A stretch of 64,000 nt of DNA. It comes from Lichina pygmaea. Its lineage: Eukaryota; Ascomycota; Lichinomycetes; Lichinales; Lichinaceae. Below the pieces are notes generated by a model. It did not search any database. It worked only from the letters and a program-made list of their open reading frames with translations, and was not told the origin of the DNA. The translations under genes and the position numbers were made by a program. The stretch spans positions 3,038,001 through 3,102,000 of the forward strand of contig OY730175.1 of the NCBI GenBank assembly GCA_963422465.1. Direction: 5' to 3'. This document shows, piece by piece, positions 5,301 to 30,003 of the stretch. Each line of letters starts with the position of its first letter. The stretch's first letter is position 1.

Positions 5301-5652
5301 GAAACCAAGAACAAAGAAACTGGACCATGTCAAGGTCAGACTATTTTCAGTCGAAGAAAGAACCGGACCAGTCAACGTCAGACTGCGACTACCGAGAGAC
5401 GCTCGGGTACACCCAAACTTTCACATCTCAATGATCGAATTAGCCGACCAGAGCACACCCTTGCAGGAAACATTTCATTACCAACCAGAGGAAGAACAGG
5501 AATTCAAGGCTGAACAGATCCTGAAGAGAAAAGGTCAGCGATACCTTGTCAAGTGGAAAGACTACCCAGACTCGGAAAATACCTGGGAGCCACTCAGGAA
5601 CCTCGCGAACTGCCAGCTCCTCCTGCAGCAGTTCCGGCAGAAGCAGGACTGA
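2383..5652 (+). pseudogene. pol region of gypsy family A (PR-RT-RH-IN-chromodomain)
   Basis: Shows, in order, an aspartic protease active site (DSGASGNYIS, near 2435), reverse transcriptase with CVDYRKLN, MPFGLTNTPA and YLDDILVYS (near 3190-3520), RNase H (TDASDQAVGA near 3930), an integrase core (MDFITKLPKS and YHPRTDGQTE, 4620-4935) and a C-terminal chromodomain (YLVKWKDYPDSENTWEPL, about 5540-5593). The chromodomain places it with the chromoviruses, whose integrases bind histone marks. The region is broken in several places and not functional as it stands. A stretch at 1748-2314, between gag and protease, has coding-like character but no domain I recognise. Confidence 0.9.
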
Positions 5653-6094
5653 ACAGCTCAGCCTGCAGCGCGGACACATCAATGACTGTCGCCGACAAGT
5701 CTTCACCATCCGCCTCTATTTCAGCAACAAGGCACTGGAGCTTCTTCTTTGCTCGACCCTCAGCACCCTCAAGAACCTTTCGCTTTCGGGACACACAAGC
5801 CTGCAGCTCAGCAAGCTGCTCGACAAGAGCATCCCGCTTGGCCTCATCGACAGCCAAATCCTCGCGAAGGTTATCCCGAGTCATGTTCAGCGACTCCCAA
5901 GAAAGTGACACACAGGACTTTCCCCGACGAGTGCACTCAGCGCACTTCAACTTATCGTTGTCGTCAGACATTCGGAAGCAGGGCTTGTGGTTCAAAACAC
6001 AGAAGTCACACGGAGCAAGTGACACAAAGTTATGATCACGGATCTGGGCTGCCAGTTGGTTTCGGTAAGCAGAGGCACGTGATTTTGCAGACAT
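5594..6094 (-). CDS. antisense accessory protein of gypsy family A, paired CX2CX6C
   Basis: Uninterrupted minus-strand frame of about 166 residues lying tail-to-tail with pol (58-bp overlap) and starting 45 bp inside the 3' LTR. I chose the Met at 6094 because it lies inside the element; the open frame extends upstream into the LTR to 6178. It has two cysteine clusters, CDFCVLNHKPC and CAECTRRGKSC (both CX2CX6C), then a charged helix with heptad-like Leu/Ala spacing (AKRDALVEQLAELQA) and an Ala/Gly/Ser-rich tail. A zinc- and nucleic-acid-binding role is inferred from the cysteine pattern only. No known function is recognised. A shorter frame with the same cluster pattern occupies the same place in family C (29,694-29,885). 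The region is CpG-rich and open although the sense pol is broken. Confidence 0.6.
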   Translation of the reverse strand: MSAKSRASAYRNQLAAQIRDHNFVSLAPCDFCVLNHKPCFRMSDDNDKLKCAECTRRGKSCVSLSWESLNMTRDNLREDLAVDEAKRDALVEQLAELQACVSRKRKVLEGAEGRAKKKLQCLVAEIEADGEDLSATVIDVSALQAELFSPASAGTAAGGAGSSRGS

Positions 6095-6138
6095 ACTCAA
6101 GAATTCATCAGGATGATGAATGAAGGAGAGGAGGGTAG

Positions 6139-6780
6139 TGTTACAACCCAGGGATGGGAGCCACTCATTTATAGGCAATCAGGCCGCGGGCCAGGCAAGA
6201 GGACACCATGGAAGTCAAGTGACCAACCAACAAGGGGTCACGTGACTGTCAAGACACACACGGGAGTCTCGACGCATGATGCATGAAGCATCGAGACAAT
6301 CTCACCAGTCTTGACGCATGATGCATGAAGCATCAAGACAATCTCACCAGTCTCGACGCATGATGCATGAAGCATCAAGACAATCTCACCAGTCTCGACG
6401 CATGATGCATGAAGCATTGAGACAATCTCACCCGTCTCGACGCAGGGTGCATAACATGGTGGGACTGTCAAGACAATCTCACCCGTCTTGACGTCGAGAC
6501 TGTCAAGACAATCTTGATTGTCTCGACAGGCCAGCACTATATAGTCCGGCGATAGTTCCCTTATGGAACGATCGTCTTCAACTCATGTTGTGATCCAGAC
6601 AACTAGATCTACTTCAATACAATCCTTTTGTACGAAGCCGTTGATCAGGTGTCACCACCACCACGTTCCACCAAACCCCTTCGCGCTCCTTGACACTCCT
6701 CTCCTGCGAGAACCAACCCGCCTTCCACCTCTCGCCCTAATCCTATACTCGGATAGGACAGTACGGTACGGACCACAACA
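6139..6780 (+). repeat. 3' LTR of gypsy family A (642 bp)
   Basis: Begins TGTTACAACCC and ends CACAACA, followed by the target duplication TTACT. It is 84 bp longer than the 5' LTR because it holds four rather than two 42-bp units (6271-6438). It is otherwise closely similar, with differences mainly transitions at CpG. TATA box at 6538-6543. An open frame starting at ATG 6563 runs through its end into LINE ORF2. Confidence 0.93.
6271..6438 (+). repeat. 42-bp tandem units in 3' LTR (4 copies)
   Basis: Four consecutive 42-bp units starting GACGCATGATGC. The middle units differ from the outer ones mainly at the CpG of the TCGAGAC arm. Confidence 0.9.
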
Positions 6781-27795: not shown

Positions 27796-29600
27796 TACAT
27801 GTCTAGTGATGTTGGCTTGTGATTCTTCCAGACTGCGCAGTCTGCAGTCTGATAGTTTGCTAATCTGCATTTGAAGCACAGGTTTTCTTGCTTCCTGTGT
27901 TCTTGCTCTTGAGGCAGCAACAGCTTGCACACTCTGTGAACTCTGGGACTGCAGTCTTGCCTATTCAGTTGGTTGTCCAGCTGTGACTGTGTCAGTTGGG
28001 TGCAAGTACATGTTGGCAGACTCTTGATTTCTGTTGTATAGGTATGAACCCCTGGGGTATGACTTTCATGCCAATTCTCCTGCCTATTCTGACTCACTGT
28101 TGTACTGACAATACCCAGAAGTTGGCAGAGGCCTGTAGTCTTCTGAGAATAGTCTTGAGTCAGACCAACAGTTGCTTCTCTTCCAGTTATTCGTGTACAA
28201 CTCCAGGTGTAGCACTCAGCTTGTCACTTCCTCAAGAGTCTGCAGCATGTCATGATCTTGAGTCATCTTGTGTTGGAGATCTGGCAGCAGTTTGATCAGG
28301 AGTTCCTTGGTGTGTTCCACATCTGACTTTGACCCCAGGTCTTTGCTGACCCTGTCCAGATAGTTGACAAAGTCTTGCACTGACTGCCCAGATTGCTGAT
28401 AGGTGGTGTTGTACTTTTGCAGCACTGTAAGCTCTCTATTTGTTGGATGCTCAAATTGATCCTTGAGAAAACTTTTGTACTAGTCTCAAGTCATCATCTC
28501 CATGTCACCTTTCTTGTAACAGATCTGCATCACACTCTCAATAGCTTCATCAACATACTGCATTGCTTTGAGAACTATCTTCTTATTGTCTATGACCTCT
28601 GAGATCTCAAAACCCAGCTCACATTGATGCAGGTATTTCTGCAGTTCTTGCGCACTTCTCCCAGAGTACTTTGTGATACCTCTAAGTTTGAAATCCTCTC
28701 TGTATGTCTGGGTAGTTGACATCTCTGCCCAGAACAGTCCTATGACTATGTCACTGTGGACTGGCTTATTTACAGCCAGTCCTACATATCTGCTGTCTTC
28801 CAGCCCTATGGCTTCAGTTGTGACCTGGTGACTAAGTGCCTGTAGTTCAACCCACCTTGCTATAAGGTTTGACTGCTTGTCAAGTGCCTTCTTCCTGTGC
28901 TTGAGCTTCTTGAGTTTCTCTATCAGCAACAAGAGAGTTCTATCACTATACCTGAGGATACTGTGTTTATCTGCAATAATGTTCTCCAACACACACTTCT
29001 GTCCCACATCTCCACTGTTGTGCAGTGGTGATACTACTTCTCTGGTGAGAGATTGTGTCTTCCCTGCTGGAGGCAGTCCCCCTCCCAGATAGCCAGAAGA
29101 TGCTAGCCTTTAGTCAGCCAGATCCATTATTTTATTGTCTTGTGACAATTTGCTGGGAGTCCTCTTACCACAAAGAGCTCTGCCTGAGCCAGTTATCATG
29201 AACAGACTACTTTTTTGGTGAGAGAAGAGTGAACAAAACTGTGAGAATATTACCAGCAGTGTGCTCAGGATGCTGCTTAGTGGGTAGGATCAAGTGTGTT
29301 GGTAGAATTGTTTGCTGGTCTCTAAAGAGAACAGTGAGAGTGGCTCTATATACTATACAGCTCAGAACAGAGCATCTAGCTAAGCAACCTCAACCAATCT
29401 CCAAGCCACTGCACAGCTGTCTCAAGTAGCTGGCTAGTTGTGGCTGGTCATGGCTGGCTTGTGTCAGCTATACAGGTCAGAGCTGTATTGCTCTGTTGGT
29501 CATGTGAGTAGAGCCACATCACATGATCAAGAGATGTGGGGCTGTGGATGTAGACTATTGTAAGTAGTTGTTGCAACAAGACCTTACAGTTCTCAATCAC
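27796..29600 (-). mobile_element. LTR-retrotransposon relic with gag (family D)
   Basis: Minus-strand coding-like stretch (27,800-29,200) for a gag-type protein. It has a long charged helical N-terminal region (LLLLIEKLKKLKHRKKALDK near 28,900), a retrotransposon-gag middle (YREDFKLRGITKYSGRSAQ near 28,680 and TYQQSGQSVQDFVNYLDRVS near 28,380), and a knuckle-like C-terminal CFKCRLANYQTADC near 27,850. Upstream on the same strand a TATA-bearing stretch (about 29,230-29,590) looks like its 5' LTR or leader, but the outer edge is not clear. The relic is broken and truncated on its 3' side by LINE copy D. Superfamily not certain; gypsy is likely. Confidence 0.6.
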
Positions 29601-29693
29601 AGCAAGCTTGCATCTGATAGTGTTGCCCTTCTTCTTAGACAACAAACCCAGCTGCCAGCAAAGACAGATCTTGCAAGAAAAAAGTCACAACTC

Positions 29694-29885
29694 TTACTTC
29701 TTAATATTCTTCAGCTGAGCCTTGAGCTGAGTATACTCAAGCTCTATCTTCTCCCACTCTGACTCTGTAAGATGAAGATTACAACAGTAGCTCTTCTTAA
29801 TGCACTGACTGCAAGATGTGGACACTGAGCTGACAATACACTTGGTGTGATCATGACAACATGTACTGCATGAAACTTTGGACAT
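29694..29885 (-). CDS. antisense CX2CX6C frame of family C
   Basis: 63-residue minus-strand frame starting MSKVSCSTCCHDHTKC. Two clusters, CSTCCHDHTKC and CSQCIKKSYCC, share the CX2CX6C spacing of the antisense frame of family A (5594-6094). A charged helix follows (EWEKIELEYTQLKAQLKNIK). It lies 118 bp inside the LTR at 30,004 and points away from it. It may be a shortened remnant. Function unknown; zinc binding is inferred from the cysteines. Confidence 0.5.
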   Translation of the reverse strand: MSKVSCSTCCHDHTKCIVSSVSTSCSQCIKKSYCCNLHLTESEWEKIELEYTQLKAQLKNIKK

Positions 29886-30003
29886 CTTGCCTATCTTGCC
29901 AACTTAAGAACTAAGGACTCCACAACAGTTTTTGCAAGATGTCTGGAACATAGTGAGAGAAGTGAGAGGATCTGGAGATAGAATCTTTAGAGAGAGGGGA
30001 TAG

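What the first reader, a model, noticed from the sequence alone, without database searches (positions are those of the whole stretch)
5594..30003. Convergent antisense zinc-cluster frame at the 3' end of two gypsy families
Family A carries an open minus-strand frame (5594-6094) just inside its 3' LTR with clusters CDFCVLNHKPC and CAECTRRGKSC. Family C carries a shorter one (29,694-29,885) in the same place with CSTCCHDHTKC and CSQCIKKSYCC. The spacing (paired CX2CX6C, then a charged helix) and the position are shared although the LTRs are unrelated, while family B has none. In family A it stays open next to a broken pol. I know of no described function for such an antisense gene in fungal chromoviruses; it could regulate the element or bind its RNA.
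Basis: partly seen in the sequence, partly recalled or inferred. Interest (0 to 1): 0.75.

Follow-up and report, generated by a model that had tools for sequence, protein, structure and literature searches.

The report
Retrotransposon-encoded antisense zinc-cluster regulator gene
Two families of fungal jumping genes carry, backwards at their 3' end, a small gene that looks like a fungal DNA-binding switch protein; it is kept by selection and travels together with the control region it probably acts on.

Summary
Confirmed in part and extended. The family A minus-strand frame (5594-6094) is a real gene: at least 150 copies match in this 32.5 Mb fungal genome, the six cysteines are kept in 40 of 40 sampled copies, and synonymous change is in excess (31 of 63 non-CpG variants; 22.7 expected). 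The family C frame (29694-29885) is the open remnant of a longer, broken gene; intact relatives encode 176-190 aa with dN/dS 0.24-0.34 between subfamilies. The cysteines form one Zn2Cys6-type (Gal4-type) cluster before a predicted coiled coil. The gene starts about 45-55 nt inside the 3' LTR and overlaps the end of pol tail to tail. Such antisense genes are known (brtn of Boty). New here: gene and adjacent U3 were exchanged as one block between elements with near-identical pol, and the U3s carry inverted half-site arrays not found in two LTR families lacking the gene. Best reading: an element-encoded dimeric DNA-binding regulator of its own LTR. Expression, binding and sign of regulation were not testable; the Pfam cut-off is narrowly missed, and common origin of the A and C genes is likely but unproven.

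The parts
239..796 (+). 5' LTR of the family A element (TTACT at 234-238 and 6781-6785, read by eye)
   Evidence: sequence; LTR pair 96% identical in the two longest aligned pieces
5594..6094 (-). antisense gene of family A, 166 aa (P0001)
   Evidence: synonymous excess
5912..6010 (-). Zn2Cys6-type cluster of the A protein, residues 29-61
   Evidence: cysteines kept in 40 of 40 copies
5699..5899 (-). predicted long helix, presumed coiled coil, residues 66-132
   Evidence: AlphaFold2; block pLDDT 77-95 for residues 71-130, 56 for 61-70
5594..5652 (.). tail-to-tail overlap of the antisense gene with the 3' end of pol (ORF 4960-5652)
6121..6138 (+). purine-rich tract before the 3' LTR (presumed polypurine tract; antisense leader on the other strand)
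   Evidence: sequence; inference
6139..6780 (+). 3' LTR of family A
6167..6173 (-). TATAAAT on the antisense strand, candidate antisense promoter
   Evidence: present in 38 of 40 A copies; the copies are recent, so this is weak
6265..6452 (.). 42-bp x 4.5 array in U3 with inverted arms GTCTCGA...TCGAGAC; candidate target sites
6537..6544 (+). CTATATAG, candidate sense TATA
   Evidence: DNA similarity to the complete element L069 ends near 29709
30004..30351 (+). 3' LTR of the family C fragment
30083..30128 (.). dyad in the family C U3: a direct pair of (T/A)GGCAGAG-type half-sites facing an inverted pair
   Evidence: measured on L049, whose 3189 nt are 99.6% identical to this stretch

Best explanation
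The frame is an accessory gene of a chromodomain-carrying Ty3/gypsy lineage. It encodes a small protein with a Zn2Cys6-type cluster near its N-terminus, a coiled coil that would make it a dimer, and a short C-terminal tail. It is transcribed (inferred) from inside the 3' LTR against the direction of gag-pol. The dimer (inferred) binds inverted half-sites arrayed in U3 upstream of the sense TATA box, and so sets transcription of the element, most likely as an activator or autoregulator, as is usual for Zn2Cys6 proteins (general knowledge). Shown: gene, position, selection, dyad arrays, exchange of gene plus U3 as one block. Supported but not proven: the Zn2Cys6 class. Inferred: dimerisation, binding, promoter, sign of regulation, common origin of the A and C genes.
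For: Selection: dN/dS 0.24-0.34 in the antisense frame for six pairs between C subfamilies; for L061/L079 73 of 145 differences are at third positions; each other frame has stops in at least one sequence of every such pair. A: synonymous 31 of 63 against 22.7 expected (80 of 5000 permutations); 11 of 19 against 6.5 for variants in two or more copies (112 of 5000); 8 of 10 against 3.2 in three or more (6 of 5000). Class: P0004 matches Pfam Zn_clus at E 7.6e-4, 20 bits, cut-off 21; 7 of 16 weak PDB hits of a C profile are LEU3, CYP1/HAP1, LAC9 and Pho7 chains over the cysteines; all 9 PDB fold matches of the C model and 9 of 12 of the A model are proteins that I recall as Zn2Cys6. Target: best U3 dyad reached by shuffles in A 0 and 7, L061 0, L053 0, L049 0, L083 3 of 400; in family B 398 and 400, in the copia LTR 400 of 400. 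Cassette: of 25 C loci tested, 8 combine C1 pol (96-98%) with a C2-type gene (84-85%, against 70-71% to C1); in two of them U3 aligns with C2 and the rest of the LTR plus interior better with C1. Half-sites: 26 of 36 U3s carry only the TGGA(C/T)(G/A)A class, 7 the TGGCAGAG class with at most one of the other, 2 both, 1 neither.
Against: No transcript, protein or binding data. Pfam cut-off not reached by the best protein (20 against 21 bits); only 4 of 18 C-type proteins match Zn_clus at E 0.1, fewer than match an unrelated bacterial polymerase model (5 of 18); none of 8 A proteins match Zn_clus even at E 10. Best PDB profile hit is BYE1, not a Zn2Cys6 protein. Fold matches are all weak (best E 0.31 and 0.72), and the second aligner was not available. 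The A cluster lacks the basic residues between cysteines 2 and 3. Exchange of gene plus U3 follows from contiguity and the mechanics of reverse transcription alone. Old C2 copy L067 has no dyad above chance (19 of 60); L090 and L050 reach 3 of 60. In C2/C3 arrays the inverted arm mostly matches only GGACGAG, without the leading T (one search counts 2-6 forward, mostly 1 reverse). Shuffles do not preserve tandem repeats. Controls without the gene are two families. Dyads could fold as RNA hairpins. A versus C profile comparison is weak (probability 7% and 1%).
Confidence: 0.58

Rival explanations
1. The protein is an RNA-binding or particle-associated accessory factor; the U3 dyads are hairpins in the 3' end of the genomic RNA that it, or gag, recognises.
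For: U3 lies at the RNA 3' end; dyad arms would also pair as RNA; zinc clusters can bind nucleic acid in general (general knowledge).
Against: Family A gag already has a CCHC knuckle (ORF 1088-1642, by eye); sequence and fold comparisons lean to DNA-binding Zn2Cys6 domains; C1 half-sites occur as direct pairs as well as inverted pairs.
Confidence: 0.15
2. The protein acts on the host: it recruits or blocks chromatin silencing, or steers integration, with the U3 dyads bound by host factors.
For: Position beside the chromodomain; CpG-directed decay of copies suggests strong host control.
Against: No sequence evidence for such a partner; in the mosaic loci the gene goes with U3 and not with the integrase end.
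Confidence: 0.15
3. Only the antisense RNA matters (silencing or interference); the open frame is incidental.
For: Antisense transcription from 3' LTRs without a protein is known in retroviruses (PMC10186651, abstract).
Against: Purifying selection in this frame; six cysteines kept in 40 of 40 copies.
Confidence: 0.04
4. A and C acquired zinc-cluster antisense genes independently.
For: P0001 against P0004 is hardly above shuffles with fixed cysteines (101 of 2000 local, 98 of 2000 global); profile comparison weak.
Against: P0001 against P0003 is above shuffles (1 of 2000 local, 0 of 2000 global); same order of cluster, Trp, coil and tail, same place and overlap with pol; RT segment A-C 82 of 144 identical against 67 of 144 for A-B and for B-C.
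Confidence: 0.2

Closest known systems
brtn, the additional antisense gene of Boty-like (BcGypsy1) elements of Botrytis cinerea (Zhao et al. 2011, Virology 417:248; original not read, seen through passages of PMC7264820, PMC8365987, PMC4227169)
   Same: Extra gene in antisense between pol and the 3' LTR of a fungal gypsy-type element whose gag-pol has a chromodomain.
   Different: No brtn sequence was available, so homology and a zinc cluster in it are untested; the passages read give no domain, selection test, U3 exchange or target sites.
Fungal Zn2Cys6 (Gal4-type, PF00172) transcription factors such as Leu3, Hap1, Put3, Pho7
   Same: Six-cysteine spacing, short helices at the cysteines in the model, long helix after them, dyad-like candidate sites.
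   Different: Only 166-190 aa, encoded by a retrotransposon, below the Pfam cut-off; family A lacks the basic patch.
Antisense TRP28 ORFs of plant Retand elements (PMC11963269, passages)
   Same: Antisense ORFs between pol and 3' LTR, predicted DNA binding, proposed regulatory role.
   Different: Other domain, non-chromovirus lineage, plants.
HBZ of HTLV-1 (PMC10186651, abstract)
   Same: Antisense protein under promoters in the 3' LTR; that it is a basic-zipper regulator is recalled.
   Different: Unrelated protein and virus; similarity is of design only.
Immunity regions of lambdoid phages (recalled)
   Same: A regulator gene and its target sites exchanged as a block between otherwise similar genomes.
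   Different: No regulation has been shown here; exchange here fits reverse-transcription template switching.

Membership tests
Zn2Cys6 binuclear cluster (PF00172) | CX2CX6CX5-14CX2CX6C spacing | tested here: met
   A and C; cysteines kept in 40 of 40 A copies
Zn2Cys6 binuclear cluster (PF00172) | Score over the curated Pfam cut-off | tested here: not met
   Best 20 bits against 21 (P0004); 4 of 18 C-type proteins match at E 0.1; 0 of 8 A proteins match Zn_clus at E 10
Zn2Cys6 binuclear cluster (PF00172) | Cluster fold | tested here: inconclusive
   9 of 9 (C) and 9 of 12 (A) PDB fold matches are proteins recalled as Zn2Cys6, but E 0.31 or worse
Zn2Cys6 binuclear cluster (PF00172) | Basic residues between cysteines 2 and 3 | tested here: inconclusive
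   Present in C copies such as L061 (RRDRAK) and L079, L083 (RRDHAK), absent in A (VLNHKP)
Zn2Cys6 binuclear cluster (PF00172) | Zinc and DNA binding | not testable with these tools
   needs protein
brtn-type antisense gene of Boty-like elements | Antisense, between pol and 3' LTR of a fungal Ty3/gypsy element with chromodomain | tested here: met
   chromodomain signature (pattern) in 39 of 40 A loci and in 9 of the first 20 C loci; for the other 11 C loci the pattern did not match and the reason was not examined one by one
brtn-type antisense gene of Boty-like elements | Sequence homology to brtn | not testable with these tools
   no fungal protein collection and no brtn sequence held
Ty3/gypsy chromovirus | RT, RNase H, integrase, chromodomain between LTRs | tested here: met
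   Pfam RT_RNaseH and Integrase_H2C2 in the C element of L069; chromodomain signature by pattern only; LTR pairs

The most novel reading that the evidence does not exclude
The antisense zinc-cluster gene and the U3 dyad array are a matched regulator-operator cassette. Lineages swap it by template switching during reverse transcription, and so change regulatory specificity (half-site TGGACGAG, TGGCAGAG, or GTCTCGA) while keeping the same replication machinery: the retrotransposon counterpart of phage heteroimmunity.
Probability: 0.28. Interest if true: 0.86.

Novelty: new variant of a known kind. Interest (0 to 1): 0.62.

Why it matters
Antisense genes at the 3' end of gypsy elements have been noted in fungi and plants, and the papers seen here call their function unknown. 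Here the protein has a probable DNA-binding class, clear purifying selection, a plausible target in the same element, and a natural exchange experiment (same pol, different gene plus U3). That turns the question of what these genes do into a direct binding and reporter test, and suggests that a retrotransposon may carry its own promoter-specific regulator.

Tried and rejected
Chance frame: rejected by motif shuffles and selection tests. Mirror of pol: rejected, only 59 nt of the A gene overlap pol. Pyrimidine-rich leader as a promoter element: set aside, it is the complement of the purine tract before the 3' LTR, present in both families. A TATA in the C antisense leader: none in the 160 nt before the ATG in the 20 copies examined. 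Post-insertion selection on the window copy: not claimed, since 26 of 150 copies are open. Recognition-residue differences between TGGAC and TGGCAGAG subfamilies: not resolved, because the TGGCAGAG copies are decayed. NCBIfam gave nothing relevant. Literature searches for a zinc-cluster antisense gene in fungal LTR elements showed brtn and plant cases only among the listed papers; most subscription papers are not held, so priority is not established. Host naming: ribosomal protein L3 is nearest to PDB chains 8oo0, 7olc and 7r81 (that these are Chaetomium and Neurospora is recalled), so a filamentous ascomycete is likely.
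Full report
What is there. The minus-strand frame 29694-29885 reads 63 aa. Each holds one six-cysteine motif, CX2CX6CX11CX2CX6C and CX2CX6CX8CX2CX6C. Scanning all six frames of the window for this spacing (loop of 5-14) gives two hits, these two, and none in any of 40 dinucleotide shuffles.

Family A. The element spans LTRs 239-796 and 6139-6780 (96% identical in the two longest aligned pieces), with TTACT on both sides (read). The antisense ATG lies 44 nt from the 3' LTR; the last 59 nt overlap the end of pol, which ends in a chromodomain signature. 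A genome search with the protein scored 150 of 517 candidates; all 150 match at 84% identity or more, so the copy number is a lower bound; 26 of the 150 are free of stops. I took every third of the first 118 rows (40 loci). The chromodomain signature is present in 39 of 40, the LTR start was recognised at the same place in 37 of 40, and each of the six cysteines is kept in 40 of 40. After removal of CpG columns, 31 of 63 variants in the non-overlapping 441 nt are synonymous (22.7 expected; 80 of 5000 permutations reach it); of those in two or more copies 11 of 19 (6.5 expected; 112 of 5000); of those in three or more 8 of 10 (3.2 expected; 6 of 5000). The two other frames of the same strand show no such excess.

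Family C. A search with the 63-aa piece scored 150 of 264 candidates. I fetched 40 of them. The intact relatives encode 176 aa (P0003) or 190 aa (P0004). In the window the gene is broken: the match to P0003 runs 29951-29568 with three stops, and DNA similarity to the complete element L069 ends near 29709. In C copies the gene lies antisense between the chromodomain and the 3' LTR as in A (pattern seen in 9 of the first 20 loci); two complete copies have LTR pairs 98% and 94% identical. Family B has no such gene and no room for one (by eye).

Selection on C. For six pairs between C subfamilies dN/dS is 0.24-0.34 in the antisense frame; for L061/L079 it is 0.27 (dN 0.228, dS 0.857; differences 40, 32, 73 by codon position). 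Each of the other five frames has stops in at least one sequence of every such pair. Four of the five give ratios of 0.79-2.02; the fifth, a sense frame that shares the third codon position, gives 0.37-0.46 and has stops in both sequences. Within a subfamily the ratio rests on few changes (L061/L090 1.14; L079/L083 0.27).

What the protein is. P0004 matches Pfam Zn_clus just below its cut-off (20.0 against 21 bits, E 7.6e-4) and P0003 at E 0.034; 4 of 18 C-type proteins match at E 0.1, while 5 of 18 match an unrelated bacterial polymerase model at that level; none of the 8 A proteins match Zn_clus at E 10. A profile of C proteins gives 16 PDB hits up to E 10; the best is BYE1 (E 0.088), and 7 are Leu3, CYP1/HAP1, Lac9 or Pho7 DNA-binding domains aligned over the cysteines. 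AlphaFold2 gives, for C, a cluster region with block pLDDT 64-83 and a helix 59-132 mostly above 90; for A, a poor cluster region (47-58) and a helix 66-132. Foldseek against the PDB returned 9 matches for C and 12 for A; 9 and 9 of these are Pho7, Put3, Leu3, AlcR, Hap1, Gal4 or CBF3 chains, which I recall as Zn2Cys6 proteins; the best E-values are 0.31 and 0.72. Each match is weak; their agreement is the evidence. Against: family A lacks the basic residues between cysteines 2 and 3.

Same gene twice? With cysteines held in place, P0001 against P0003 exceeds shuffles (1 of 2000 local, 0 of 2000 global), but P0001 against P0004 hardly does (101 and 98 of 2000); profile comparison gives E 0.005 and 0.055 with probabilities of 7% and 1%. 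In a shared RT segment A and C agree at 82 of 144 sites, A-B and B-C at 67 of 144 each. Common origin is more likely than convergence, not proven.

The cassette. Six pairs of C1 copies with the 190-aa copies L077, L079, L080, L083 were profiled. The pol side is 92-100% identical per 100 nt until the last 100 nt before the antisense stop codon (87-92%); identity is 63-84% through the antisense gene and 55-67% in U3. It recovers to 84-89% and higher in the second half of the LTR in 4 of 6 pairs, not in L055/L077, and in L057/L079 the compared stretch ends too early (65% over 49 nt). In a class test of 25 of the 40 C loci against references L061 (C1) and L067 (C2), 8 loci are C1 in both parts, 7 are C2 in both, 8 have C1 pol (96-98%) and a C2-type gene (84-85%, against 70-71% to C1), and 2 (L068, L086) are unclear. 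In two of the mosaic elements the LTR pairs are 99.2% identical over 364 nt. Their U3 aligns with C2 at 85-87%, while only its first 88 nt align with C1, at 70-72%; from C1 LTR position 184 through 100 nt of the interior they agree with C1 at 92.5-92.8% over 334 nt, against 80-81% with C2 over LTR and interior together. Synonymous divergence agrees: dS in the pol end is 0.10-0.19 in 12 comparisons against 0.83-0.86 in the gene for three C1/C3 pairs. One template switch during reverse transcription explains this, because U3 is copied from the 3' end of the RNA and R-U5 from the 5' end (established retroviral mechanism).

U3 arrays. Family A U3 has a 42-bp unit repeated 4.5 times with inverted arms. 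U3 was delimited in 36 of 40 C loci. C1 has direct pairs of TGGACGA-type sites facing inverted pairs; C2 and C3 have 35-bp units repeated 2-6 times (by eye), in which the inverted arm mostly matches only GGACGAG; the C4 group, to which the window copy belongs, has TGGCAGAG-type sites in the C1 layout. Census: 26 of 36 have the TGGA(C/T)(G/A)A class and none of the TGGCAGAG class; 7 have the TGGCAGAG class (TAGCAGAG and TGGTAGAG counted in) with at most one of the other; 2 are mixed; L067 has neither. Number of 400 shuffles that reach the best dyad: A 0 and 7, L061 0, L049 0, L053 0, L083 3; family B 398 and 400; the copia LTR at 43025 400. With 60 shuffles: L075 and L084 0, L090 and L050 3, L067 19, a third B LTR 60. 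The shuffles do not keep tandem repeats, and the controls without the gene are two families only.

Mechanism. The simplest account is an element-encoded dimeric DNA-binding protein that acts on its own U3. In A the array lies between an antisense TATAAAT (38 of 40 copies; weak because copies are recent) and the sense TATA. Steps shown: gene, selection, place, exchange, arrays. Steps inferred: transcription, dimer, binding, sign. The exchange alone does not prove a functional pair, since gene and U3 are neighbours.

What is known. An antisense gene, brtn, was reported in Boty-like elements in 2011; I saw it through passages of three papers, not in the original. Plant Retand elements carry antisense TRP28 ORFs with a proposed regulatory role (passages of PMC11963269). 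Retroviral antisense proteins such as HBZ are driven from the 3' LTR (abstract of PMC10186651). Eight literature searches listed no paper that, by title or abstract start, reports a zinc-cluster identity, a selection test or a U3 exchange for a fungal antisense gene; most subscription papers are not held.

Noticed in passing
window 43025-46509: Copia-type element with identical 196-nt LTRs; its 938-aa frame has gag, beta-barrel and integrase matches but no reverse transcriptase match at E 1: a recent, apparently non-autonomous insertion.
   Followed up: partly
family A copies L009-L048: Decay is CpG-directed: 94 of 258 C/T-type variable columns are at CpG, though CpG makes up 13% of C sites; CpA is not preferred (86 columns, 36% of sites), unlike classical RIP.
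   Followed up: partly
window 27697-30885 and L049 (G000:C7:2921552-2924740): 3189 nt 99.6% identical, about 144 kb apart on the same contig: a recent duplication that includes the family C remnant.
   Followed up: no
window 28486-29007 (-): Minus-strand frame that looks gag-like by eye, in sequence not matched by the complete family C element L069; no Pfam match of weight. Probably another element beside the C remnant.
   Followed up: no
window 239-6785: The A element seems to sit at the start of a non-LTR element (ORF 6563-9607, 1014 aa; by eye a LINE endonuclease-RT).
   Followed up: no
L069: The complete C1 element lies inside a family A-like element: A-like pol pieces flank it on both sides (by eye).
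   Followed up: no
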